A stretch of 64,000 nucleotides of DNA from Flavobacterium sp. Its GTDB lineage: Bacteria; Bacteroidota; Bacteroidia; Flavobacteriales; Flavobacteriaceae. The position numbers and the translations under genes are program-made. The DNA lies in contig NZ_JAIXWA010000072.1 of the NCBI RefSeq assembly GCF_027482425.1, positions 62,001-126,000 of the forward strand. The letters run 5' to 3'. Positions 1-33,704 of this stretch are shown here, piece by piece; position 1 is the first letter of the stretch; each line of letters starts with the position of its first letter. The notes under the pieces are model-generated. The model worked only from the letters and a program-made list of their open reading frames with translations. It made no database searches and was not told where the DNA came from.

Positions 1-1
1 A

Positions 2-400
2 AAACAAAATTTTTCTGAACACCCACTAGGGTCTGGATTGGGGAGTCATCACCATATGTATATCAACCATTATTATAAAAACATGAGAGCTCCTGAATAT
101 TTAAAATTCCTTAATCATGATAAAGATAACTCATATGACGCTAATTCACTCATGAATAGAATGGTCTCTGAATTCGGAATTCTGGGTATTTTACTAGTAG
201 TATTTTTATTGATAAAAGCTTATAAAAAATCTTTTAAAACTAATGATTTTTTACTGCAAGGAATATTTATTTACTTTTTATTAAAACTATTTAGAGACGG
301 CACATATTTTCCTCCCGAATTGTATTTTTTCGTATGGCTTTTTATTTTGTCGAATCCCCAAAAACCAGATCAAGAAAAGGTGTTAAAAACTTCTTTATAG
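2..400 (+). CDS. O-antigen polymerase/ligase-like membrane protein, C-terminal part (5' end outside window)
   Basis: Frame is open back to the window edge (KQNFSEHPLGSGLGSHHHMYINHYYKN...); GSG-G-HH motif and hydrophobic C-terminal helices typical of Wzy/O-antigen ligase ends. Confidence 0.6.
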   Translation, partial: KQNFSEHPLGSGLGSHHHMYINHYYKNMRAPEYLKFLNHDKDNSYDANSLMNRMVSEFGILGILLVVFLLIKAYKKSFKTNDFLLQGIFIYFLLKLFRDGTYFPPELYFFVWLFILSNPQKPDQEKVLKTSL

Positions 401-1467
401 AATAATTCTGTTTCCGAGCAACATTTCTCCCAACTGTATTTTTGAGATTGTAAAAACCCTTCGGAAATAAGTTCTTGACGAAAATCTGTATTCTCTATCT
501 TTTCAATAGCTTTATTAAATTCAGAAATGTCCAAATTCTCCAATAAAACTGCGCCTGAGGGAGCTATTTCAGCTATTGAAGAATTATTCATGCTAATTAC
601 GGGACAACCCGCTCGCATAGCTTCAATGATAGGTATGCCAAACCCTTCGTAACTTGAAGGATATAACAAGGCTACTGCTTTATTATAAATCCAATTCAAT
701 TGAATATCATCAACATTATTCAATTCAATTATTCGATTTAAAATTTCCTGTGGAATGTTCGTCTTCTCTTGTTTACTTAATGTAGAGCCAACGACACATA
801 GGTTATAATTGGGTAAAGTTTTAAGTAACTCTAAAACAAAATTAAAGTTTTTATATCCAGCTCTACTCCCTACAAACAAAAGAAATGGCGTTTCTAAATT
901 ATTTTCGACAATAAATTGATACCCTGATGATAACTCCAAATTTACATTTCTAAATTCTGGATTTACGCCATTGTATATCACTTCAATTTTTTTTGCAAAA
1001 TTAGTTCCGCATTTCTCTTTTAAATCTTTATAGGTATTCTTGGATACACAAATAATTCCTTTAGATCGTTGAATAGAAGAATATTTGAAATAATTATGTA
1101 GTTTTTTTTTATGATATGGAAAGAAAAAGTCGTGCGTAAAATCATGTATTGTGGTCACTTCAATTTTATTCTTTGCACCCAATAAATTTCTGTAAAAACT
1201 GGAATGATAAATAAATGGTTCTGTTGAAGAATAAAAAATTGGTTTTACGCGCTGTATTATTCCCGGTTTAACAGAGGATATGACTTTTGACGTATATTCT
1301 TTTTTTAATAAGTTATTTCTATGATAATTATACTCATTTTCACAGTCAATCATGGTGAGGTTAAATTCAGAATGATTGATAAAATAAGCAATAATTTCAC
1401 CCCAATAATTTGAGATACCTCCATTATTACTTTTTCCAAAAATGATATTATCAAGAATTAACTTCAT
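370..1467 (-). CDS. Glycosyltransferase family 4/1
   Basis: GT-B C-terminal motif YPSSYEGFGIPIIEAMRAGCPVI and LFVGSRAGYKN. Confidence 0.85.
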   Translation of the reverse strand: MKLILDNIIFGKSNNGGISNYWGEIIAYFINHSEFNLTMIDCENEYNYHRNNLLKKEYTSKVISSVKPGIIQRVKPIFYSSTEPFIYHSSFYRNLLGAKNKIEVTTIHDFTHDFFFPYHKKKLHNYFKYSSIQRSKGIICVSKNTYKDLKEKCGTNFAKKIEVIYNGVNPEFRNVNLELSSGYQFIVENNLETPFLLFVGSRAGYKNFNFVLELLKTLPNYNLCVVGSTLSKQEKTNIPQEILNRIIELNNVDDIQLNWIYNKAVALLYPSSYEGFGIPIIEAMRAGCPVISMNNSSIAEIAPSGAVLLENLDISEFNKAIEKIENTDFRQELISEGFLQSQKYSWEKCCSETELFYKEVFNTFS

Positions 1468-1475
1468 GATTTCAA

Positions 1476-1507
1476 AAAAAAAGAAGTTTATATAAACTTC
1501 TTTTTTT
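1476..1507. terminator. 32-bp perfect palindrome AAAAAAAGAAGTTTATATAAACTTCTTTTTTT, probable intrinsic terminator
   Basis: Perfect inverted repeat with A/T tails between two minus-strand genes. Confidence 0.7.
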
Positions 1508-1512
1508 GGTTC

Positions 1513-2037
1513 TTATTTAGTTAATAGTTCTAAAGCTTTTTCGTTACCTACAAATGTTGGTGGGTATTTTTTTGTGTGGTCTAAATTATATCTTGATTTA
1601 ACAGCATCCCAACTAAAACCATCATCAGTTAAAAAATATTGTGAATGTTTGCCTGAACTTCCGTCCAAAACCACTTTATTATTTTTAATTACTGAAATTG
1701 TATTTAAAACCAATGTCTGTTGATCTGGGTTTGTACTGCTAATTAATTTAATATTCTCCAAGGCTACACCAGAGGGAATAATTACTTCTATTCGCTGACT
1801 AACAGGATTTCCTTGAACCTTTTGTCCTATAGATTTATCATATTGGTAAAATCCTTTTTCTTGATAAACTACATTGATACTGTCATTTTTCTCGTAAACA
1901 CCTTCTAATACCAATGAATATTGATCAACTGGTTTTGAATTTGAATCTCCAGAGGTGTCATCGCTAGTTGCTGACTTATCTTTTCCGCAAGAACTAAATA
2001 ATGTTAATCCAATAAATATAAGGCAAATTTTTTTCAT
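1513..2037 (-). CDS. Hypothetical lipoprotein
   Basis: Signal peptide with lipobox-like LFSSC followed by a low-complexity linker. Confidence 0.65.
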   Translation of the reverse strand: MKKICLIFIGLTLFSSCGKDKSATSDDTSGDSNSKPVDQYSLVLEGVYEKNDSINVVYQEKGFYQYDKSIGQKVQGNPVSQRIEVIIPSGVALENIKLISSTNPDQQTLVLNTISVIKNNKVVLDGSSGKHSQYFLTDDGFSWDAVKSRYNLDHTKKYPPTFVGNEKALELLTK

Positions 2038-2140
2038 CTTTTGATTCTTTTGAAGACAAATCTACAAAATAAATTAGGATTGCTATTTAATGATAAAAAA
2101 TTTTTGAATAGTAAATCCTATATTTGCTCAAATAGTCATA

Positions 2141-3367
2141 ATGAAAAAAAATATTACCATTATTACTGCAAATTTTTATCCAGAAGATACTGCAATTGGC
2201 TTATATACTACTCAATTCGCAGAATATTTAGCAGTTGATAATCAAGTTACTGTTTTAACAGGATTCCCTTATTATCCCCAATGGAAAATTTACACGGAAT
2301 ATCAACAAAAAGAGAATATTGTAATTGAATACCTCAACGGTATAAAAATTATTCGATCTAAACAATATGTCCCATCAAAAGTAACTCTTATCAAACGATT
2401 GAAGATGATATTTTCTTTTGTTTTGGGAATTTCGAAAAATAAAAACAAAGTAAAAGAATGTGATGTTGTCATTTGCCTGGTTCCTTTTACATTTTCAATA
2501 TTTACAGCTTATAAACTCGCTAAACAGACCAATGCTAAACTTTGGATTCACATTCAAGACTTTGAATTTGATTTAGCCTTTGAATCCGGGATTTTTAAAA
2601 AAAGCAGTCTCATTAGTTTTATGACTCAAAAAACGGTCTATACCATTGAAAGATTTTTGTTGAATAAAGCCAATGTTATCAGTACTATCAGTAATCAAAT
2701 GATGCTGAAAGTTTCTGAAAAATCGAATAATAAAGATGTATTTTACTTTCCTAATTGGATTTCTAAAGAAAAAATTAATCCTGAAGTTGCGCAAAAGCAC
2801 GCTTTTTTTAAAGATAACAAGTTCTCTCTTTTGTATTCCGGTAATATTGGAGAAAAACAAGATTGGAATTTGTTTTTATCCGTAGCTGAACGATTACAAA
2901 ACAATACAAACATTGAAATCATCATCGTGGGTAATGGAGGGTATTTAAACACATTAAAGGAACGTTGTAAAATGTTAAACAATGTGACTTTTCATGATTT
3001 AGTTCCCTACGAAGAATTAAATAATTTGCTTTGTAGTGCTTCTTTACATTTTTTATTTCAAAAAAACGAAGTGCTAGACACCCTCATGCCTTCAAAATTA
3101 CTAGGTATGATGGCCAGTACTCGCCCTTGCCTTGTAACTGGAAACCCTAAATCTGAAGTCGCAAAAGTATTAACTGAAGATTGTGGATACTACATCGCGA
3201 ATCCATCAACCGAAACCATCTATGAAATCATCAACCGTATTTCACAAAACGAAATTGATAGTTCAAAATTGGGAATTAAAGCTCGAGAAAAAATAATTAA
3301 TCAATTTTCAGATTCAAAGGTATTAGCGCGATTTAAAGAAAAAATAAATGAAATTAGCAATGCATAA
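2141..3367 (+). CDS. WcaI-like glycosyltransferase (GT4)
   Basis: ITANFYPEDTAIGLYTTQFAEYLA N-terminus and LLYSGNIGEKQDWN; typical of WcaI/WbuB-type glycosyltransferases. Confidence 0.8.
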   Translation: MKKNITIITANFYPEDTAIGLYTTQFAEYLAVDNQVTVLTGFPYYPQWKIYTEYQQKENIVIEYLNGIKIIRSKQYVPSKVTLIKRLKMIFSFVLGISKNKNKVKECDVVICLVPFTFSIFTAYKLAKQTNAKLWIHIQDFEFDLAFESGIFKKSSLISFMTQKTVYTIERFLLNKANVISTISNQMMLKVSEKSNNKDVFYFPNWISKEKINPEVAQKHAFFKDNKFSLLYSGNIGEKQDWNLFLSVAERLQNNTNIEIIIVGNGGYLNTLKERCKMLNNVTFHDLVPYEELNNLLCSASLHFLFQKNEVLDTLMPSKLLGMMASTRPCLVTGNPKSEVAKVLTEDCGYYIANPSTETIYEIINRISQNEIDSSKLGIKAREKIINQFSDSKVLARFKEKINEISNA

Positions 3368-4607
3368 AATTAGAATAGATGCTATTCATTCGTATTTAAT
3401 TTATCCATTATTGGCATTTCCATTATGGAAAGAAAACATTACTATGTTATTTTTTGTTTTGTTTTCCGTTTTTAATATCCGGTCATTTATCATAACAAAA
3501 AAAGTGACTGGGATCCATAAAGTTGAAGGCTGGGTGCTATTTATCCCTTTTCTAATTGTCCTTTTTTCTAGTTTTTTAAGAAATGAAATTCACGAAAACA
3601 AAGATGCTCTAAATCATGCAGGTTTATTCGTCGCATTACCTTTGTCCTTCATAATGGCTCCAGATTATCTTTTTGATAAAAAAAAGATTTCGGGTTATTT
3701 GAATTTCTTACTATATTCTTCACTTATTTTAATACTCGCTTATTTACTTTTATTTTTTTATCATAATCCTGTAAATGATTTTTTCGGAACAAAGTATAAC
3801 AGTTCATTATTTAGAGACTTTGTTTATGAAAAAACAATAATATTCTCTATACACCCAGCCTACTTTAGCAGTGTTTTATTTCTAGGTATGGCATTTTGTG
3901 TTGAAAAAATAAAACACACATTTTCATTAAAATACCTTAGTTTTATTGTTGTTTTTTATGTATTTACTTTTCTACTATTGTCAAAATTGAACATACTTTT
4001 AATGCATATTTTATTAATTTATGCCTTATATTCTACTAAAACAATAACTAAAAAATCAAAGTTAATTTCTGGATTTGTATTTGGAATTTTAATGTCCCTT
4101 TTTGTAGTATTTACCCCAGGAATGTTCAAGCGAATTGAAGAAATTTATAAAAGTTTTAATACTGTCCCAAGCGGTCTGGCCTTTGATTCTACGAACATAA
4201 GAAGGGCAATTTACACGTGTGATTTTGAATTAATTCAAAGTAACTATTTAAGTGGGATTGGATATTCAAATATTGTAAACGATATACAACGCTGTTTTCA
4301 ATCAAAGTATGATTCAAGTTTTTTCGAAGGAGCCAATTATATGAGTCATAACTTTTTTATCTATACGCTCTTAGGTTCAGGAATAGTTGGACTTATTCTA
4401 TTCCTATTTTTTATCTTCAAAACAACCTTTTTTCTATTTCGTTTTCATAGCATAACCTTTCAAGCATTTGCTGTAAATACAATTGCAATGTGTTTGATAG
4501 AAGATTATTTCTACCGTCAAAATGGTGCTTTCTTTTTTCTTTTATGGTATTTGATATTATTACGCTTTGGAGCAAAAAATAACAAAATTGAAAATCCTAT
4601 TCTGTAA
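3348..4607 (+). CDS. O-antigen ligase family membrane protein
   Basis: Polytopic protein with SHNFFIYTLLGSGIVGLILF motif of Wzy/WaaL proteins; overlaps the upstream glycosyltransferase by 20 nt. Confidence 0.75.
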   Translation: MKLAMHKIRIDAIHSYLIYPLLAFPLWKENITMLFFVLFSVFNIRSFIITKKVTGIHKVEGWVLFIPFLIVLFSSFLRNEIHENKDALNHAGLFVALPLSFIMAPDYLFDKKKISGYLNFLLYSSLILILAYLLLFFYHNPVNDFFGTKYNSSLFRDFVYEKTIIFSIHPAYFSSVLFLGMAFCVEKIKHTFSLKYLSFIVVFYVFTFLLLSKLNILLMHILLIYALYSTKTITKKSKLISGFVFGILMSLFVVFTPGMFKRIEEIYKSFNTVPSGLAFDSTNIRRAIYTCDFELIQSNYLSGIGYSNIVNDIQRCFQSKYDSSFFEGANYMSHNFFIYTLLGSGIVGLILFLFFIFKTTFFLFRFHSITFQAFAVNTIAMCLIEDYFYRQNGAFFFLLWYLILLRFGAKNNKIENPIL

Positions 4608-5451
4608 TTTTCAATAATGCTGTTTTCCAATCTGAAATTTGAATATTAAATGCTTGTTTTATTTTGCCTTTCGATAAAACACTATAGGCTGGTCGGCGTG
4701 CAGGTGTGGGAAATTGATCCGTTGAAATCGGTTGAACAGGAATAGCAATTGAATTTTTTCTAAAAATGGCTTTTGCAAATTCATACCAGCTGCATTGTCC
4801 TTCATTGCTATAATGATAAATTCCATAGGGATGGACATCCATTACGCAGTCTTTTTGGATCAAATCGACCAATAAAACCGACAAATCCAACGCATTGGTT
4901 GGCGATCCAATTTGATCATTGACTACAGACAATCGGTCTCGTTCATGCGCTAATCGCAACATTGTCTTCATAAAGTTATTGCCGAAAGGAGAATAAACCC
5001 AAGACGTTCGGATAATATAATATGCACTCGAATAATTTTGAATGGCTTGTTCTCCAGCCAACTTGCTCGCACCGTAAACGCCGAGTGGAGCCGTAGTGTC
5101 GGTTTCCGTATAGGGCGTGTTTTGGGTGCCATCGAAAACGAAATCCGTGGATATGTGGACTAAAGTGGTCCCAAATTCGGAACATACGTTAGCCAAATAC
5201 TCCGGGCCCGTAGCATTAATTAAATAGGCTTTTTCTGGTTCGGATTCAGCTTTATCTACTGCCGTATAAGCCGCAGCATTGATACAATAATGGGGTCTAA
5301 CTTTAGAAAAAAGCGCTGTAATCGACGCTAATGAGGTAATATCAAGTTGCGTTGAGTCGCAAAATATCCATTTAATTGAGGTGTTTTTAGGTACACTATG
5401 TTGCAACGATTGCCCCAACTGCCCTCCTGCTCCAGTAACTAAAACTACCAT
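4597..5451 (-). CDS. rfbD: dTDP-4-dehydrorhamnose reductase
   Basis: VLVTGAGGQLGQSL, HISTDFVFDG, YGASKLAGEQ, RTSWVYSPFGNNFMKTML. Confidence 0.95.
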   Translation of the reverse strand: MVVLVTGAGGQLGQSLQHSVPKNTSIKWIFCDSTQLDITSLASITALFSKVRPHYCINAAAYTAVDKAESEPEKAYLINATGPEYLANVCSEFGTTLVHISTDFVFDGTQNTPYTETDTTAPLGVYGASKLAGEQAIQNYSSAYYIIRTSWVYSPFGNNFMKTMLRLAHERDRLSVVNDQIGSPTNALDLSVLLVDLIQKDCVMDVHPYGIYHYSNEGQCSWYEFAKAIFRKNSIAIPVQPISTDQFPTPARRPAYSVLSKGKIKQAFNIQISDWKTALLKITE

Positions 5452-12905: not shown

Positions 12906-15035
12906 TAACACCATGGTCAGTTGAATACGTTTTCGAACCTCATCAACCTCCAAGACTTTTACCTGAACATGTTGGTGCATTTTGACGACTTCATTGACAT
13001 CGGAGACAAAGCCGTCTTTCAATTGGGAAATATGCACTAAACCACTCTCTTTAATACCAATATCGACAAAACAACCAAAGGCAGTAATGTTGTTTACAAT
13101 TCCGGGTAAAATCATTCCAGAACGCAAATCGTGTAGCGTTTTAACATGGGGATCAAATTCAAAAACCTTTGCGGCTTTTCGCGGATCCAATCCGGGTTTT
13201 TCTAATTCTTTTAAAATATCTTTAACCCCAAGAATTCCAACAGTATCGTTGACGTAATTCTCAGGCTTAATCTGGGCAATTTTGGTTTTGTTTGCAATCA
13301 ACTCGCCTACTTGAATCCCTAAATCTTTAGCCATTTTCTCGACCACTTTATACGATTCGGGATGCACCGCCGAATTATCCAAGGGATTTTTCCCGTCTTT
13401 GATGCGAATAAAGGCTGCGGCTTGTTGAAACGCTTTGTCGCCCAAACGAGGGACTTTTTTTAATTGATTACGATCTTGAAAGGGTCCGTTTTCGGAGCGG
13501 AATTTGACAATATTTTCGGCCATTTTTTCACCGATACCGCTCACATAACTCAGCAACGATTTGCTCGCCGTATTAATATTGATTCCTACCGCATTAACAC
13601 ATCGCATGACGGTGTTGTCGAGTTCTTCCTTTAACTTCATTTGATCTACATCGTGTTGGTATTGCCCCACGCCAATGGACTTAGGGTCGATCTTAACCAA
13701 CTCGGCCAAGGGATCGCACAAACGGCGCCCGATGGAAACCGAACCCCGCACGGTGACGTCGTAATTTGGAAACTCTTCGCGGGCTATTTTACTCGCTGAA
13801 TACACCGATGCCCCCGCTTCGGAAACCACAAAAACCTGAACAGACTTATCGAAGGCAATTTTCTTGATAAAAAACTCCGTTTCCCGACTCGCCGTTCCGT
13901 TACCGATGGAAATCGCTTCAATGTTGTACGCATTGACCATGGATTTTATTTTTTTCATGGCCATGGCGGTTTCATGTTGGGGCGCATGCGGATAAATCGT
14001 TTCGTTGTATAACAAGTCGCCTTTTTCATCCAAACAAACGACTTTACAACCCGTTCGGAAACCTGGATCGATCGCCAAAACGCGTTTTTCTCCCAAGGGA
14101 GAAGCGAGTAACAACTGCCGTAAATTTTCGGAGAAAACGGCAATCGCTTTAGCATCGGCTTTTTGCTTGGCTTCTTGTAAAGTTTCGTTGGAAATGGCGG
14201 GTTCCAACAAGCGCTTGTAACTGTCTTTTATGGCTAATTTTAAGTGGGGTGTCGTATCGTTATTACGTTTGATAATGGCTTCTTCTACCATGGCGATAGC
14301 TTCGTCTTTGTCGAGGGTGACTGAAAACTTGATACACCCTTCGGCTTCAGCACGCAACATGGCCAATAACCGATGGGAAGGTGCTTTTAATAAGGGTTCA
14401 GACCAATCAAAATACTGGGCAAACTTTTGGGCGTTCTCGTCGGTATCTTTTCCTTTAACGACTTTTGTTGTAATTACCGATTGTCGTTGAAATTGACGCC
14501 GAAGTTGTTTTCGAACAAACAGGTTTTCGTTGATCCATTCGGCGATAATATCGCGCGCGCCTTGTAGAGCATCGTCTTCGTTGACCACATTTTTATTCAA
14601 ATATTTGGAAGCCAAATAGTCAATGTCGTCGGAGTTTTGCGCCATGATTATTTTGGCCAAGGGCTCCAAACCGTTTTCTCGTGCGATATCTGCTTTGGTT
14701 TTCTTCTTCTTTTTATACGGCAAATACAAATCTTCGATTTCACTTGCGTCAAAACTCTTTTCAATTTTTGCTTGAAGTTCGGGATGCAATTGCCCTTGTT
14801 CGGCTATACTGGCCAAAATACTTTCCTTGCGTTTGAGAAGTTCGTCAAACTGCTTTTTGAATTTGGCAATTTTTTCAAGCACGACCTCATCGAGGTTGCC
14901 TGTTTTGTCTTTTCGATAGCGGGCAATAAAAGGAATTGTACAATCTTCTGAGAGCAATTGGAGTGCTGCTTCAATGTTTTTGGCCGCGACTTCAGGAAGT
15001 TGTAATTGACTTTGAATAAAAGAAATACTGTTCAT
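12903..15035 (-). CDS. tex: Tex-like RNA-binding transcriptional accessory protein (S1 domain)
   Basis: VLAIDPGFRTGCKVVCLD, RDIIAEWINEN, C-terminal S1 GMILPGIVNNITAFGCFVDIGIKESGLVHISQL; start MNSISFIQSQL inside the longer ORF. Confidence 0.95.
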   Translation of the reverse strand: MNSISFIQSQLQLPEVAAKNIEAALQLLSEDCTIPFIARYRKDKTGNLDEVVLEKIAKFKKQFDELLKRKESILASIAEQGQLHPELQAKIEKSFDASEIEDLYLPYKKKKKTKADIARENGLEPLAKIIMAQNSDDIDYLASKYLNKNVVNEDDALQGARDIIAEWINENLFVRKQLRRQFQRQSVITTKVVKGKDTDENAQKFAQYFDWSEPLLKAPSHRLLAMLRAEAEGCIKFSVTLDKDEAIAMVEEAIIKRNNDTTPHLKLAIKDSYKRLLEPAISNETLQEAKQKADAKAIAVFSENLRQLLLASPLGEKRVLAIDPGFRTGCKVVCLDEKGDLLYNETIYPHAPQHETAMAMKKIKSMVNAYNIEAISIGNGTASRETEFFIKKIAFDKSVQVFVVSEAGASVYSASKIAREEFPNYDVTVRGSVSIGRRLCDPLAELVKIDPKSIGVGQYQHDVDQMKLKEELDNTVMRCVNAVGININTASKSLLSYVSGIGEKMAENIVKFRSENGPFQDRNQLKKVPRLGDKAFQQAAAFIRIKDGKNPLDNSAVHPESYKVVEKMAKDLGIQVGELIANKTKIAQIKPENYVNDTVGILGVKDILKELEKPGLDPRKAAKVFEFDPHVKTLHDLRSGMILPGIVNNITAFGCFVDIGIKESGLVHISQLKDGFVSDVNEVVKMHQHVQVKVLEVDEVRKRIQLTMVL

Positions 15036-15650: not shown

Positions 15651-16082
15651 TTAAGAACAGGCTATTTTTTGAACGCGGTTTTGATGTCGACCGCCTTCAA
15701 ATGGGGTTTCGAGAAACGTAGCCACCATTTCGATCGCTTGAGGAATAGCGGTGAATCGAGCGGGAATACTAATGATATTCGCATCGTTATGTTGACGCGC
15801 TAAAGCAGCAATTTCTTTGGTCCAACAAAGGGCTGAGCGAATCGCTTGGTGTTTGTTGACCGTCATATTGATTCCGTTACCTGAACCACAAATGACGATG
15901 CCTAAATCAGCACGCCCTTCAGCGACATCTAAGGCTACAGGATGGCCAAAATCGGGATAATCTACACTCGAATCGGTATCGGTTCCGTGATTGATAACTT
16001 CATAGCCTTGAGCCTGTAACCAACTTACAATAGCTTTTTTGTAATCGGGTCCGGCGTGATCGTTTCCTATTGAAATGCGCAT
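15651..16082 (-). CDS. rpiB: Ribose 5-phosphate isomerase B
   Basis: MRISIGNDHAGPDYKKAI, DTDSSVDYPDFGHPVA, GIVICGSGNGINMTVNK, HNDANIISIPAR; start is internal to the listed ORF. Confidence 0.94.
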   Translation of the reverse strand: MRISIGNDHAGPDYKKAIVSWLQAQGYEVINHGTDTDSSVDYPDFGHPVALDVAEGRADLGIVICGSGNGINMTVNKHQAIRSALCWTKEIAALARQHNDANIISIPARFTAIPQAIEMVATFLETPFEGGRHQNRVQKIACS

Positions 16083-16175: not shown

Positions 16176-16700
16176 ATGGAATTCGAAGCATTTTTGGAAA
16201 CGTTTAAGGATCACGCGATTGGCTACGGACCACACTTTCAAATTCCAAATGAAGTTTATTTTAAGATGCTCAAAAAATGCAAAGACAAACGCGTGATTTG
16301 TACAATTAATCATACTGTGACGCTTCATTCGGCCCTGCTACAAAAATCGGGCTTATATTTTATATTACTCAACCAGCCTTTGGTGAAAAAGCAAAATTGG
16401 AATATAGGAGATTAATTAATGATCCATTTAGCGCCCGATGAATCAACTTATGGTATGCCTATTTCGGAAGAATTTCAGGAAGTTTTAGCGAGCGATCCTG
16501 AGGGGAGTGATTGGTTTCATCAATTGACGCCAGGAAAACAACGATCGCTACTTCATGTGATTAATAAAATTAAAAGTTCACAGCTTAAAATTCAGCGAAG
16601 TTTTGTGATTTTGGAGCATCTTAAACGGCAGCAAGGGAAGTTGGATTATCAAATTCTAAATCAGGACATTAAAGCGTTTAATGAAAAAATGAGTTTATAA
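16176..16700 (+). pseudogene. YdeI/OmpD-associated family (DUF1905) gene split by an in-frame TAA
   Basis: ORFs 16176-16415 and 16419-16700 are in the same frame, separated by TAA-TTA; together they read ...NWNIGD*LMIHLAPDESTYGMPISEEFQEVLASDPEGSDWFHQLTPGKQRSLLHVINKIKSSQLK..., one continuous YdeI-like protein. Confidence 0.7.
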
Positions 16701-17220
16701 TAAATAATTGATAATCAATATTTTAAAAGATTTTTTTTGAACGATGTTAATATCATTTTACAATAGCCTGATTTTCAGTTAACTTTAAATTAACATTTAT
16801 TGTTGATAATTTTGAAAAGAAAATCAGAAGTTTTTTTAAAGGGAAACCTAATTTTTATAAGCAAAAATTTCTAGGAGAAATCCAATGAAAGTTTTGCTTT
16901 TTTTTTGGAAAATTATTGACATCAAAAAATAGGTTTTCAACAGTTTTTGGTATAAAAAGTTATGCGAAAAAAAGAAGTAAATTTAATTATTGACAGTTGT
17001 TAATAAAATCTGTAATTTTCTTTATTTTAAAAGGATTAGGTTTTTAAAAAGCTGTTTATAAAACGGTATAATTTTCTATAAGTTTTTGAAAAAATAAAAA
17101 GCGAAAAAGTTTTACCCTTTATCAACACCCTATTATAACCATCATAATTTTTAAGAAATTTTAAAAATGAATTTGTTGTTTTTAAAAAGTGTTGAAAACT
17201 TCAATCTTTTGAAAATAATT
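16701..17220. other. Candidate chromosomal replication origin (oriC)
   Basis: ~520 bp AT-rich, ORF-free DNA. DnaA-box-like 9-mers: TGTTGATAA 16801-16809, TTTTCAACA 16934-16942, TGTTAATAA 16998-17006, TGTTTATAA 17053-17061, TTATCAACA 17119-17127, TGTTGAAAA 17190-17198. Flanking genes mostly diverge. Confidence 0.6.
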
Positions 17221-17454
17221 TTAAACGATATGAAGCGGGTTGTTGAGATCGTTAATTAATTGTTGGGTTCGTTCTTGATCGTTGGGATGTACTTTGAGTC
17301 GTATGCCGCCTAAGGCAATACTAGCAAAAGGATCTACGGAAACAATCGTTTCGTTTTCGAAAAAATGAGGAATGTTTTCTCGATCCAAGAGGGTTTTTAA
17401 AATATAGGTTTCTTGAGGTAAATGAAAGATGGCAACGGTAATAAAATCTTTCAT
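17221..17454 (-). CDS. DUF2007-type putative signal-transducing protein
   Basis: FITVAIFHLPQETYILKTLLDRENIPHFFENETIVSVDPFASIALGGIRLKVHPNDQERTQQLI. Confidence 0.75.
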   Translation of the reverse strand: MKDFITVAIFHLPQETYILKTLLDRENIPHFFENETIVSVDPFASIALGGIRLKVHPNDQERTQQLINDLNNPLHIV

Positions 17455-17586: not shown

Positions 17587-19767
17587 ATGCCAAGAAACCG
17601 AAAAAATCTTGGGAAAAAGAATAAAACCTTTTCCGAGAAAATCTTTAAAATCCTATCTAAAAGTCCGAATAAACCGTTTAACTACAAACAGATTGCCGCT
17701 ATTTTAGAGCTAGATGATACCAAAAGCCGTAATGAAATCATCAAGGACTTGAAAATTCTTGCTTCGCAAAAAGTTATCACTGAAATTGAGCCTGGAAAAT
17801 ATCTCATTCCTTCCGACCATCAGGAATATTACGAAGGAACTATCGATATGACTACGCGAAAAACAGCGTATTTTATTTGTGATGAATTAGAAGACGATGT
17901 TTTTATTCCGTTTATCAATTTAAATCACGCTTTGCATGGAGATCGAGTAAAAGTGTATGTGTACAACAAACGTGCTTCACGAAAACCGGAAGCAGAAGTA
18001 GTAGAGATTCTTGAGCGTGCAAAATTGGAGTTTGTGGGTGTCGTCGATGTACAAAAGAATTTTGGTTTTGTAACGACGGCCAATCCAAAAATGTATACCG
18101 ATATTTTTATTCCAAAAAATAAATTAAATGAAGCGCAACATGGTGATGTGGTGTTGGTTCGCTTGGAAGATTGGCCTCAAAAAGCCGATTCTCCTTTTGG
18201 TTCGGTGATTAAAGTTTTAGGTAAACCTGGAGAACACGATACAGAAATTCATGCCATTTTAGCCGAATACGGGCTACCTTACGATTTTCCGATTGAAGTA
18301 GAAGCTTTTGCTAATAAAATTGATACTTCGATTACAGCTGATGAAATAGCAAAACGCAGGGATATGCGCGGTATACTTACCTTTACTATTGACCCACGCG
18401 ATGCGAAAGACTTTGATGATGCATTGTCGTTTCAGGTTTTAGACAATGGAAATTACGAAATTGGTGTTCATATCGCCGATGTTTCGCACTATGTAAAAGA
18501 AGGAACAATTTTAGATGAAGAAGCCTATAAACGAGCGACTTCAGTCTACTTGGTCGATCGTGTGGTTCCGATGTTGCCCGAAGTTTTATCCAACTTTGCC
18601 TGTTCGTTGCGTCCTCATGAAGAAAAATTTACGTTTTCAGCCGTTTTTGAATTGAATAACAAAGCCGAATTGGTCCATCAATGGTTTGGTCGAACGGTGA
18701 TTTATTCTGATCAGCGATTTGCCTACGAAGAAGCCCAACATATTATTGAAACAAAATCAGATATAATTCCAGCGAAAACATCGTTAACTGGAAAAGATTA
18801 TCAAGTGCCATCTCCCATTGTTGATGCGGTTTTAACTATGCATGAATTGGCTAAAATTTTACGTCAAAAACGGATGGCAGCTGGAGCGATTTCATTTGAT
18901 AAAGTAGAAGTAAAGTTTAATTTGGATGAAAATGACGAACCGACAGGCGTGTATTTTAAAGTTTCCAAAGAAGCCAATTTCTTGATTGAAGAATTCATGT
19001 TACTGGCCAATCGAAAAGTGGCTGAATTTATTGGCAAACAAAAGAAAACTTTTATTTATCGGATTCACGATGAACCCAATGAAGATAAATTAATTGGACT
19101 TCAATCGGTGATTTCAAAGTTTGGGTATTCGATTAATTTCAAAAGCAAACAAACGATTTCCAAGTCGTTGAATGATTTATTGGCCGAAGTCAACGGTAGA
19201 AAAGAACAAAATTTAGTCGATACTTTGGCCATTCGTGCGATGAGCAAGGCTCGTTATTCTACAGAAAATATTGGTCATTACGGACTTGCGTTTGAAAATT
19301 ACAGTCATTTTACTTCACCTATTCGACGCTATCCTGATGTGATGGCGCATCGTTTATTGCAACATTATTTAGACGGTGGAAAAAGTGCCGATGAAGAAGC
19401 TTTTGAAGAAAAATGTGAACATTCCACCGATATGGAAATTTTAGCTGCCAATGCAGAACGCGATTCGGTGAAATATATGCAGGTTAAATACATGAAAGAC
19501 CATATGGATCAAGAGTTTTTGGGTGTTATTTCAGGGGTAACTGAATGGGGAATTTACGTTGAAATTATTGAAAACAAATGTGAAGGAATGGTTCGAATTC
19601 GCGATATCAAAGAGGATTATTATGTATTTGATGAGAAACAATATGCATACATCGGCGAGCAATACAAAGGCATGTTGCAGTTAGGCGATGAAGTTTTTGT
19701 GAAAGTGAAAAACGCCGATTTGGTAAAAAAACAATTGGATTTTACGTATTTGCGAAAAAAGGAATAA
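17587..19767 (+). CDS. rnr: Ribonuclease R
   Basis: RNB motif FTIDPRDAKDFDDALSFQ, HIADVSHYV, FTSPIRRYPDVMAHRLLQ, C-terminal S1 domain. Confidence 0.96.
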   Translation: MPRNRKNLGKKNKTFSEKIFKILSKSPNKPFNYKQIAAILELDDTKSRNEIIKDLKILASQKVITEIEPGKYLIPSDHQEYYEGTIDMTTRKTAYFICDELEDDVFIPFINLNHALHGDRVKVYVYNKRASRKPEAEVVEILERAKLEFVGVVDVQKNFGFVTTANPKMYTDIFIPKNKLNEAQHGDVVLVRLEDWPQKADSPFGSVIKVLGKPGEHDTEIHAILAEYGLPYDFPIEVEAFANKIDTSITADEIAKRRDMRGILTFTIDPRDAKDFDDALSFQVLDNGNYEIGVHIADVSHYVKEGTILDEEAYKRATSVYLVDRVVPMLPEVLSNFACSLRPHEEKFTFSAVFELNNKAELVHQWFGRTVIYSDQRFAYEEAQHIIETKSDIIPAKTSLTGKDYQVPSPIVDAVLTMHELAKILRQKRMAAGAISFDKVEVKFNLDENDEPTGVYFKVSKEANFLIEEFMLLANRKVAEFIGKQKKTFIYRIHDEPNEDKLIGLQSVISKFGYSINFKSKQTISKSLNDLLAEVNGRKEQNLVDTLAIRAMSKARYSTENIGHYGLAFENYSHFTSPIRRYPDVMAHRLLQHYLDGGKSADEEAFEEKCEHSTDMEILAANAERDSVKYMQVKYMKDHMDQEFLGVISGVTEWGIYVEIIENKCEGMVRIRDIKEDYYVFDEKQYAYIGEQYKGMLQLGDEVFVKVKNADLVKKQLDFTYLRKKE

Positions 19768-31355: not shown

Positions 31356-31767
31356 TTTCAATTATGAATCTGACTTCTCTCTCGAAAACGAGTCGCAATT
31401 TGAGGCTTGGATTCAACAAATAATTCTTTCTGAGCAAAAATCAGAAGGTGAGATAAATTATATTTTCTGTGATGACGAATATTTGTTGGGAATCAACCAA
31501 AAATATCTTGATCACGACTATTATACCGATATAATTAGCTTTGATTATTCTGTAGCAAATGAACTACACGGCGATATATTTATTTCTACGGATAGAGTAG
31601 CTGAAAATGCCTTAACATACAACGTTACTTTTCAGCATGAATTGCTACGTGTTATGGCGCATGGCATCCTTCATTATTGTGGGTATAAAGACAAATCCGA
31701 TGTAGAATCGCAGTTAATGCGCAATAAAGAGGATGAAAAAATAGCTTTGTTCCACGTGGAACATTGA
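31348..31767 (+). CDS. ybeY: rRNA maturation RNase YbeY
   Basis: LDHDYYTDIISFDY, GDIFIS, HELLRVMAHGILHYCGYKDKS. Confidence 0.93.
   Translation: MISFNYESDFSLENESQFEAWIQQIILSEQKSEGEINYIFCDDEYLLGINQKYLDHDYYTDIISFDYSVANELHGDIFISTDRVAENALTYNVTFQHELLRVMAHGILHYCGYKDKSDVESQLMRNKEDEKIALFHVEH
31748..31763. promoter_or_regulatory. parS-like ParB-binding palindrome 1 (inside ybeY 3' end)
   Basis: TGTTCCACGTGGAACA, perfect 16-bp palindrome with the TTYCACGTGRAA parS core. Confidence 0.75.
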
Positions 31768-31794: not shown

Positions 31795-31810
31795 CGTTCC
31801 ACGTGGAACA
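31795..31810. promoter_or_regulatory. parS-like palindrome 2
   Basis: CGTTCCACGTGGAACA (14-bp palindromic core), 47 bp from site 1. Confidence 0.75.
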
Positions 31811-31819
31811 TTGTGAATT

Positions 31820-33688
31820 ATGTTTTCAACGTATGATGTAATTGTGGTGGGTGCGGGTCATGCGGGCTGTGAGGCAGCTGCGGCTGCAGCCAATCTCGGG
31901 TCAAAGACGCTCCTTGTGACCATGAGCCTTCAGAATATTGCGCAAATGTCTTGCAATCCTGCGATGGGCGGTATTGCTAAAGGACAGATTGTTCGTGAAA
32001 TAGACGCGCTCGGTGGGTATTCGGGCATAGTTTCAGACAAAACAGCAATTCAATTCAAAATGTTGAATAAGTCGAAAGGTCCCGCCATGTGGTCTCCGCG
32101 TGTGCAATCTGACCGTATGCGTTTTTCGGAAGAATGGCGCTTAATGCTTGAAAACACCCCTAATTTGGACTTCTATCAAGAAATGATTCGTGGACTTATC
32201 GTAAAGAATGGTAAAGTTATGGGCGTACGAACAGCCTTAGGTATAGAAATACATGCCAAAGCGGTTGTACTGACCAACGGAACCTTTTTAAATGGATTGA
32301 TTCATATTGGAGAAAAACAATACGGTGGAGGTAGAGCAGGGGAGAGCGCCGCTACAGGAATTACGGAAGAGTTGGTTCAACTCGGGTTTGAAGCGGGACG
32401 CATGAAAACAGGAACGCCACCAAGAGTAGACGGACGTTCGTTGGATTATTCTAAAATGCGTGAGGAACCCGGAGACGATCATCCAGATAAATTCTCATAT
32501 GCCGCTATAACACGACCGTTAACACATCAAAAACTCTGTCATGTGACCTATACTTCTCCTGAAGTACATAGTATTTTACGAGAAGGGTTTGACCGTTCTC
32601 CGATGTTCAACGGACGTATTCAAAGTATCGGACCTCGTTATTGTCCTTCTATCGAAGATAAAATTAACCGTTTTGCTGATAAGGATCGACATCAATTGTT
32701 TGTGGAACCCGAGGGATGGAATACCGTTGAAGTGTATGTGAATGGATTCTCTACATCGCTACCCGAAGACGTGCAATTTAAAGCTTTGCGAACCGTTGAA
32801 GGTTTTGAAAACGTAAAATTCTTCCGTCCAGGCTATGCGATTGAATACGATTATTTCCCCCCAACGCAATTAAAACACACCTTAGAAACCAAATTGGTAG
32901 AGAATTTATATTTTGCGGGACAAATCAATGGAACCACAGGTTACGAAGAAGCGGCCTCCCAAGGCATAATGGCTGGGATTAATGCCCATTTGAAAATTCA
33001 TGAACAAGACCCCTTAATTCTCAAGCGCGATGAAGCGTATATTGGGGTGTTAATTGATGATTTGATTACCAAAGGAACTGAGGAACCCTATCGTATGTTT
33101 ACTTCGAGAGCTGAATATCGTACGTTGCTTCGTCAAGACAATGCCGATTTCCGTCTTACCCCTAAAGCCTATGCTATCGGTTTGGCCGACGAGAGCCGTT
33201 ATGTTCGAATGCAAGAAAAGTATTCAAAGAGTGACGCGTTATTAGACTATTTTAAAGAAACAAGTGTTACACCCGAAGAAGCTAACCCAATTTTGATTGA
33301 AAAAGGAAGCTCGCCGATGATTCAAACCGACCGGATGTTTAAAGTTTTCTCACGACCTCAAATTGATTTGAGTGACATTGTTCGTTTTGAAAAAGTGAAA
33401 ACGTATATTGAAACCCATCAGTTGGATGCTGAAATTGTAGAACAAGCCGAAATACAATTGAAATATTCGGGCTATATTGAAAAGGAACGAAATAATGCTG
33501 AAAAACTTACCCGTTTGGAAGAAATGAAAATCCCAGACGATTTTGATTTTTATAAAGTTCATTCCTTGTCTATAGAAGCCAAACAGAAATTAACGGCCAT
33601 TCGTCCAGTAACAATTTCTCAAGCTTCGCGAATTAGTGGTGTTTCACCGGCTGATATTTCAATCTTATTAATTTACATGGGGCGCTAA
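31820..33688 (+). CDS. mnmG: tRNA uridine-5-carboxymethylaminomethyl modification enzyme MnmG (GidA)
   Basis: YDVIVVGAGHAGCEAAAAAANLGSKTLLVTMSLQNIAQMSCNPAMGGIAKGQIVREIDALGG. Confidence 0.97.
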   Translation: MFSTYDVIVVGAGHAGCEAAAAAANLGSKTLLVTMSLQNIAQMSCNPAMGGIAKGQIVREIDALGGYSGIVSDKTAIQFKMLNKSKGPAMWSPRVQSDRMRFSEEWRLMLENTPNLDFYQEMIRGLIVKNGKVMGVRTALGIEIHAKAVVLTNGTFLNGLIHIGEKQYGGGRAGESAATGITEELVQLGFEAGRMKTGTPPRVDGRSLDYSKMREEPGDDHPDKFSYAAITRPLTHQKLCHVTYTSPEVHSILREGFDRSPMFNGRIQSIGPRYCPSIEDKINRFADKDRHQLFVEPEGWNTVEVYVNGFSTSLPEDVQFKALRTVEGFENVKFFRPGYAIEYDYFPPTQLKHTLETKLVENLYFAGQINGTTGYEEAASQGIMAGINAHLKIHEQDPLILKRDEAYIGVLIDDLITKGTEEPYRMFTSRAEYRTLLRQDNADFRLTPKAYAIGLADESRYVRMQEKYSKSDALLDYFKETSVTPEEANPILIEKGSSPMIQTDRMFKVFSRPQIDLSDIVRFEKVKTYIETHQLDAEIVEQAEIQLKYSGYIEKERNNAEKLTRLEEMKIPDDFDFYKVHSLSIEAKQKLTAIRPVTISQASRISGVSPADISILLIYMGR

Positions 33689-33704
33689 TGTTTCACGTGA
33701 AACA
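33689..33704. promoter_or_regulatory. parS site 3, consensus type
   Basis: TGTTTCACGTGAAACA, identical to the widely conserved bacterial parS; begins right after the mnmG stop codon. Confidence 0.85.

What the first reader, a model, noticed from the sequence alone, without database searches (positions are those of the whole stretch)
16701..17220. Candidate oriC: AT-rich ORF-free region with six DnaA-box-like 9-mers and mostly divergent genes
Seen directly: ~520 bp with no plausible ORF, very AT-rich, containing TGTTGATAA, TTTTCAACA, TGTTAATAA, TGTTTATAA, TTATCAACA and TGTTGAAAA (16801-17198). These are two inverted pairs of TTATCAACA/TTTTCAACA-type boxes plus two variants, all near the DnaA consensus TTATNCACA. 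Most genes from 4.6 to 16.1 kb are on the minus strand and most after 17.6 kb on the plus strand, as expected of leading-strand bias either side of an origin. dnaA is not in the window, so an origin here would be unlinked to it at this scale. The assignment as oriC is inference.
Basis: partly seen in the sequence, partly recalled or inferred. Interest (0 to 1): 0.75.

Follow-up and report, generated by a model that had tools for sequence, protein, structure and literature searches.

The report
Flavobacterium replication origin with spaced DnaA-type boxes
This short AT-rich stretch is very probably where this Flavobacterium starts copying its chromosome; it carries seven binding sites for the starter protein whose spacing has been kept almost to the base across the genus, far from the gene for that protein.

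Summary
The oriC reading is strongly supported, by computation only. In two complete same-genus chromosomes the cumulative GC-skew minimum falls in the orthologous box cluster (G010, 1,040,057) or about 190 bp from it (G036, 871,230), while dnaA lies 0.87-1.04 Mb away. The seven boxes have near-invariant spacing (56/134/64/55/66/71 bp) across the genus, although the spacers are only about 50% identical. A three-box spacing signature occurs exactly once in each of 66 of 121 genus genomes, never in the control. All exact parS matches of the window's genome flank gidA, 14.6-16.5 kb from the array. In relatives where the array left the rpiB-rnr gap it persists near gidA/parS, so it is not an rnr or rpiB regulatory site. 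Boxes read TTATYAACA rather than TTATNCACA; DnaA carries changes in its DNA-reading motifs. No conserved DnaA-trio or unwinding element was identified. Origins unlinked to dnaA, and at mnmG/gidA in this family, are already known; the rigid array and shifted box appear undescribed in the literature searched.

The parts
16701..17220 (.). Proposed oriC: gene-free, 20% G+C region between two convergent gene ends
16745..16753 (-).
   Evidence: box at this offset (+-1 bp) in 21 of 21 aligned loci, but shifted control positions also reach 15 of 21; the least certain of the seven
16801..16809 (-). Box B2 TTATCAACA
   Evidence: 56 bp from B1; 21 of 21 loci
16934..16942 (+). Box B3 TTTTCAACA
   Evidence: 133 bp from B2 (134 in most relatives); 19 of 21 loci
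16998..17006 (-). Box B4 TTATTAACA
   Evidence: 64 bp from B3; 20 of 21 loci
17053..17061 (-). Box B5 TTATAAACA
   Evidence: 55 bp from B4; part of the three-box signature found once per genome
17119..17127 (+). Box B6 TTATCAACA
   Evidence: 66 bp from B5; part of the three-box signature
17190..17198 (-). Box B7 TTTTCAACA
   Evidence: 71 bp from B6; part of the three-box signature
15651..16082 (-). rpiB, ribose-5-phosphate isomerase B; left neighbour in most Flavobacteriaceae
16176..16415 (+). small ORF, no family match
   Evidence: a homologue in L033 and L030
16419..16700 (+). YdeI/OmdA-like gene (PF13376), ends at the left edge of the array region
17221..17454 (-). small conserved ORF, no family match, ends at the right edge of the array region
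   Evidence: homologues at 39-66% identity in most Flavobacterium relatives and some other genera
17587..19767 (+). rnr, ribonuclease R; right neighbour
   Evidence: TIGR02063, 735 bits
31749..31762 (.). parS-like site GTTCCACGTGGAAC
31796..31809 (.). parS-like site GTTCCACGTGGAAC
31820..33688 (+). gidA (mnmG), with parS-like sites beside it in all seven relatives examined
   Evidence: PF01134 E 5.8e-162
33690..33703 (.). parS-like site GTTTCACGTGAAAC

Best explanation
The region is the chromosomal replication origin, oriC. DnaA is proposed to bind seven boxes of consensus TTATYAACA (B1-B7, 454 bp from end to end) set at fixed distances and orientations (- - + - - + -), so that the bound molecules form a nucleoprotein scaffold of fixed geometry that opens the AT-rich DNA and lets DnaB helicase load in both directions. 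ParB bound at the parS sites around gidA, 15 kb away, would then move the new origins apart. Shown by computation: box array, spacing conservation, coincidence with the GC-skew minimum in complete relatives, proximity of parS, separation from dnaA. Inferred: that DnaA is the binding protein, the unwinding site, helicase loading, and segregation.
For: GC skew: in complete congener G010 samples around the chromosome are negative before and positive after 1.04 Mb, and the minimum of 80 contiguous kb is base 1,040,057, inside the box cluster 1,040,034-1,040,487; in G036 it is 871,230, with the cluster at 870,512-871,043; in near-complete G032 it is 807,447, with boxes at 806,276-806,685. In G010 the skew turns back between 2.57 and 2.80 Mb; the point opposite the array would be 2.77 Mb. 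Boxes: six strict boxes, 0 of 2000 shuffles; TTDTCAACA occurs 2.48 times per orthologous region against 0.08 expected, in 38 of 42 loci. Spacing: 56/134/64/55/66/71 bp across the genus; B1-B4, which were not used to select the rows, are present at the expected offset in 21, 21, 19 and 20 of 21 loci while spacers are 50% identical. Uniqueness: one match per genome in 66 of 121 genomes, 64 of them with the same 146-bp span, none in the reversed control. Segregation marker: all exact parS matches lie beside gidA within about 21 kb of the array in G000, G010, G036 and G032. Initiator: a standard DnaA is present.
Against: No marker-frequency or binding data. The window's genome is an 83-contig draft, so its whole-chromosome skew was not computed, and within its contig the minimum is at 14,094, 2.7 kb from B1. 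In G011 the skew minimum (533,871) lies 17 kb from the displaced array, and in G009 about 8 kb. 55 of 121 genus genomes lack the strict three-box signature; some of these have the array with variant boxes, the rest were not examined. No conserved DnaA-trio was found. The boxes deviate from TTATNCACA at position 6.
Confidence: 0.93

Rival explanations
1. The boxes are operator sites of a transcription factor that controls rnr, rpiB or the small neighbouring genes.
For: The array lies between rpiB and rnr in most Flavobacteriaceae, and multi-site operators can have fixed spacing.
Against: In the window the array lies between two gene 3' ends, not promoters. In G009 and G011 the array with the same spacing sits 12-14 kb away from rnr while rpiB and rnr remain together with a 60-70 bp gap to the small ORF. 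The signature occurs once per genome. The skew minimum falls at the array in G010 and G036.
Confidence: 0.03
2. The array is a DnaA-binding site of regulatory type (a titration or reset site such as datA or DARS), and the true origin is nearby, for example beside gidA.
For: Clusters of DnaA boxes also act as regulators in E. coli (general knowledge). In G022, which lacks the array between rpiB and rnr, a box cluster lies directly beside gidA (999,399-999,821 against 1,000,448). A published Ori-Finder prediction for a Flavobacteriaceae genome places oriC at mnmG/gidA (PMC12843772).
Against: In G010 and G036 the skew minimum is at the array, 16-19 kb from gidA. The G022 cluster is easier to read as the same origin relocated, since the genome has lost the one between rpiB and rnr.
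Confidence: 0.04

Closest known systems
Escherichia coli oriC
   Same: One non-coding AT-rich region with several 9-bp DnaA boxes in both orientations, not next to dnaA, at the GC-skew minimum, with gidA/mnmG in the neighbourhood (E. coli comparison from general knowledge).
   Different: Box consensus TTATYAACA, not TTATNCACA; spacing, number of boxes and flanking genes differ; no DUE or DnaA-trio was identified, and IHF or Fis sites were not looked for.
Ori-Finder predicted oriCs of Flavobacteriaceae and Weeksellaceae (Algorimicrobium, PMC12843772; Elizabethkingia meningoseptica, PMC8994065)
   Same: Origin predicted from box clusters and skew; away from dnaA in Elizabethkingia; in Algorimicrobium assigned to mnmG/gidA, which lies 15 kb from the array here.
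   Different: The Elizabethkingia report uses TTATCCACA with up to one mismatch (three boxes); I found no spacing rule in the passages read; here the array is between rpiB and rnr and position 6 is A.
Lineage-specific DnaA boxes (Epsilonproteobacteria, PMC5043019; Cyanobacteria TTTTCCACA, PMC10225481)
   Same: The box consensus shifts with the lineage, and changes in helix 5 of DnaA domain IV are the suspected cause in Epsilonproteobacteria.
   Different: Epsilonproteobacterial boxes keep the core TTCAC and show no common box arrangement across species; the genus here has CAACA or TAACA and one common arrangement.

Membership tests
Bacterial chromosomal oriC | Lies at the GC-skew minimum of the chromosome | tested here: met
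   In complete congeners: inside the cluster in G010, about 190 bp from it in G036. Own genome: draft, contig minimum 2.7 kb away.
Bacterial chromosomal oriC | Cluster of DnaA boxes in a non-coding AT-rich region | tested here: met
   Seven boxes, 20% G+C, 0 of 2000 shuffles reach the observed count; that DnaA binds them is inferred.
Bacterial chromosomal oriC | Boxes fit the E. coli-type consensus TTATNCACA (TTWTNCACA) | tested here: not met
   No TTATNCACA in the region, and 0.05 per locus against 0.08 expected in the genus; TTDTCAACA is enriched instead. Lineage-specific boxes are accepted in other groups (PMC5043019, PMC10225481), so this lowers only the claim of a canonical origin.
Bacterial chromosomal oriC | One copy per chromosome, conserved between related species | tested here: met
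   Signature once per genome in 66 of 121 genomes, no second copy, control 0.
Bacterial chromosomal oriC | parS sites of the ParABS system nearby | tested here: met
   All exact parS matches in G000, G010, G036 and G032 are 14-21 kb from the array and lie beside gidA.
Bacterial chromosomal oriC | DNA unwinding element / DnaA-trio (BUS) | tested here: inconclusive
   No register of three or more NAN trinucleotides is present in more than 63% of rows, and the best register gives only two in the window; AT-rich stretches are everywhere in the region.
Bacterial chromosomal oriC | Replication starts here in living cells | not testable with these tools
   Needs marker-frequency or start-site mapping.
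DnaA initiator (own genome) | AAA+ and domain IV of standard type | tested here: met
   PF00308 E 1.7e-62, matches the solved DnaA 8btg at E 3.4e-102; domain IV motif reads SLANIG..IGDRDHATV where 8btg has SLPKIG..FGGRDHTTV; the same motif letters recur in G010, G036 and G022.

The most novel reading that the evidence does not exclude
Flavobacterium has evolved its own DnaA box, TTATYAACA, together with changed base-reading residues in DnaA, and uses a seven-box scaffold whose inter-box distances are under selection to the base pair; the whole module can move as a unit within tens of kb of gidA/parS. This would make spacing, rather than sequence, the most conserved property of the origin.
Probability: 0.45. 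Interest if true: 0.65.

Novelty: new variant of a known kind. Interest (0 to 1): 0.5.

Why it matters
Origins of Bacteroidota are little studied: in the literature searched, origins in this phylum appear as skew- or Ori-Finder-based predictions. A single-copy spacing signature gives a direct way to find the origin in many Flavobacterium drafts, shows that numbering chromosomes from dnaA can put base 1 about 1 Mb from the likely origin, and offers a natural test of whether DnaA-oligomer geometry constrains box spacing. If the DnaA changes explain the shifted box, it is a clear case of initiator and origin evolving together.

Tried and rejected
First genus-wide signature scan failed because the run of N in my pattern had the wrong length (even the own genome gave 0); repeated with explicit gap lengths. 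DnaA-trio search: no register conserved. Boxes near dnaA: no box cluster at the start of the G010, G036 or G022 chromosomes, so a dnaA-linked origin is not supported. More distant G049 (another family of the order): no box cluster near rnr; skew minimum (768 kb in the fetched stretch), parS (749-751 kb) and a cluster of canonical-type boxes (787 kb) are all well away from rnr at 944 kb, so the rpiB-rnr location does not extend to it. Rfam: only one tRNA in the window. Literature: nothing on an rpiB-rnr origin; DoriC entries could not be inspected.

Full report
What is there. Region 16701-17220 is 20.2% G+C in a 38.9% window and holds no gene. It is bounded by the 3' end of a YdeI/OmdA-like gene (16419-16700, plus) and the 3' end of a small conserved ORF (17221-17454, minus), between rpiB (15651-16082, minus) and rnr (17587-19767, plus). 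A dinucleotide shuffle of the same 520 bases gives 0.15 boxes of that kind on average, never more than 3 in 2000 trials; no other 520-bp stretch of the window has more than 1. A seventh box at 16745 was missed.

Neighbourhood in relatives. RNase R was found in 59 of 60 relatives and in 80 named loci. rpiB (minus) and rnr (plus) with a gap between them recur through the Flavobacteriaceae, from Flavobacterium to Aquimarina, Winogradskyella and Tenacibaculum. In 42 Flavobacterium-like gaps TTDTCAACA occurs 2.48 times per locus against 0.08 expected, in 38 of 42; TTATNCACA is not enriched (0.05 against 0.08). In 40 other gaps TTATNCACA is enriched (0.57 against 0.10). Unconstrained k-mer counting picked out the same box words. 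So the A at position 6 appears to be a feature of the genus; a few loci in the first group are unnamed MAGs.

Spacing. Box positions in the relatives fall at 56/134/64/55/66/71 bp, with orientations - - + - - + -; the window has 56/133/64/55/66/71. 21 non-redundant loci selected only by B5-B7 were compared without gaps. B1-B4, which were not used for selection, are found at the expected offset (+-1 bp) in 21, 21, 19 and 20 of 21; positions shifted by 5-30 bp average 0.06-1.1, though for B1 one shifted control reaches 15, so B1 is less certain. Ungapped identity to the window is 50% in spacers and 73% in boxes. The three-box signature with small tolerances in the two gaps was searched in 121 genus genomes: one match in each of 66, none twice, none with the pattern reversed; 64 of the 66 have exactly the same 146-bp span and two have 147.

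Replication evidence. Complete congener G010 was sampled at 20 places: GC skew is negative from 2.8 Mb through 0 to 1.04 Mb and positive from 1.04 to 2.57 Mb. In the contiguous 1.00-1.08 Mb the cumulative minimum is base 1,040,057, inside the box cluster 1,040,034-1,040,487. In G036 the minimum of 835-915 kb is 871,230 and the cluster is 870,512-871,043; the sampled skews of G036 are noisier but follow the same pattern. In G032 it is 807,447, with boxes at 806,276-806,685. dnaA is at position 415 in G010 and G036, so 1.04 and 0.87 Mb away. In the window's own contig the minimum is at 14,094.

parS. Exact GTTYCACGTGRAAC matches in five genomes lie only around gidA. In the window they are at 31749, 31796 and 33690, flanking gidA (31820-33688), 14.6-16.5 kb from the array. 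In G010 the distance is 16-18 kb, in G036 19-21 kb, in G032 15-17 kb.

The array is a module. In G009 and G011 the array has left the rpiB-rnr gap and lies 12-14 kb downstream of rnr, 3.8 kb before the first parS site; spacing is the same (all six distances in G009, the last four in G011). The skew minima are 8 kb (G009) and 17 kb (G011) away, with a nearly level or gently rising curve between. In G022 the gap has shrunk to about 220 bp, no array matching the signature exists, and a box cluster (999,399-999,821) lies 0.55 kb before parS and gidA, where the skew changes from negative (960-980 kb sample) to a rising curve after 1.0 Mb. This argues against a regulatory role for rnr or rpiB.

Initiator. 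Own DnaA (475 aa, contig C46) is of standard type. In the part of domain IV that reads bases, the solved DnaA 8btg has SLPKIG..FGGRDHTTV and Flavobacterium has SLANIG..IGDRDHATV, recurring in G010, G036 and G022. PMC5043019 names residue 399, residue 423 and the start of helix 5 as base-reading in E. coli DnaA; the P-to-A and T-to-A changes fall at these places by my own alignment by eye. That they cause the shifted box is a hypothesis.

Limits. No experiment; draft genome; 55 of 121 genomes lack the strict signature and were mostly not examined; box consensus at positions 6-9 was partly imposed by the definition used, though not; DUE and DnaA-trio not found. G049, of another family in the order, does not have the origin near rnr.

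Relation to what is known. Unlinked origins and lineage-specific boxes are known, and Ori-Finder has placed an origin at mnmG/gidA in another Flavobacteriaceae genome. What I did not find described is the conserved seven-box spacing and the TTATYAACA box.

Noticed in passing
L196, L197, L200 (G010, G036 and G022 C1:1-2500): Three complete Flavobacterium chromosomes are numbered from dnaA although their GC-skew sign change is about 0.87-1.04 Mb away.
   Followed up: yes
G022 C1:999399-999821 (L215): A species that lost the rpiB-rnr array has a different box cluster directly before parS and gidA, probably a relocated or rebuilt origin.
   Followed up: partly
L043: A contig filed under a Candidatus Nitrotoga MAG encodes an RNase R 83% identical to this Flavobacterium's; probably a mis-binned contig.
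   Followed up: no
window 17221-17454: Small ORF (77 aa) without any family match, conserved at 39-66% identity beside the origin in most Flavobacterium relatives; function unknown.
   Followed up: no
window 1-5000: Lower G+C (0.28-0.32) than the rest of the window (about 0.39), extending to the left on the contig; possibly foreign DNA.
   Followed up: no
other Flavobacteriaceae gaps (loci L044-L081): Words of an extended motif TACCGCTATTAACA are strongly enriched in rpiB-rnr gaps outside Flavobacterium (ATAGCGGTA in 13 of 40 loci against about 0 expected).
   Followed up: no
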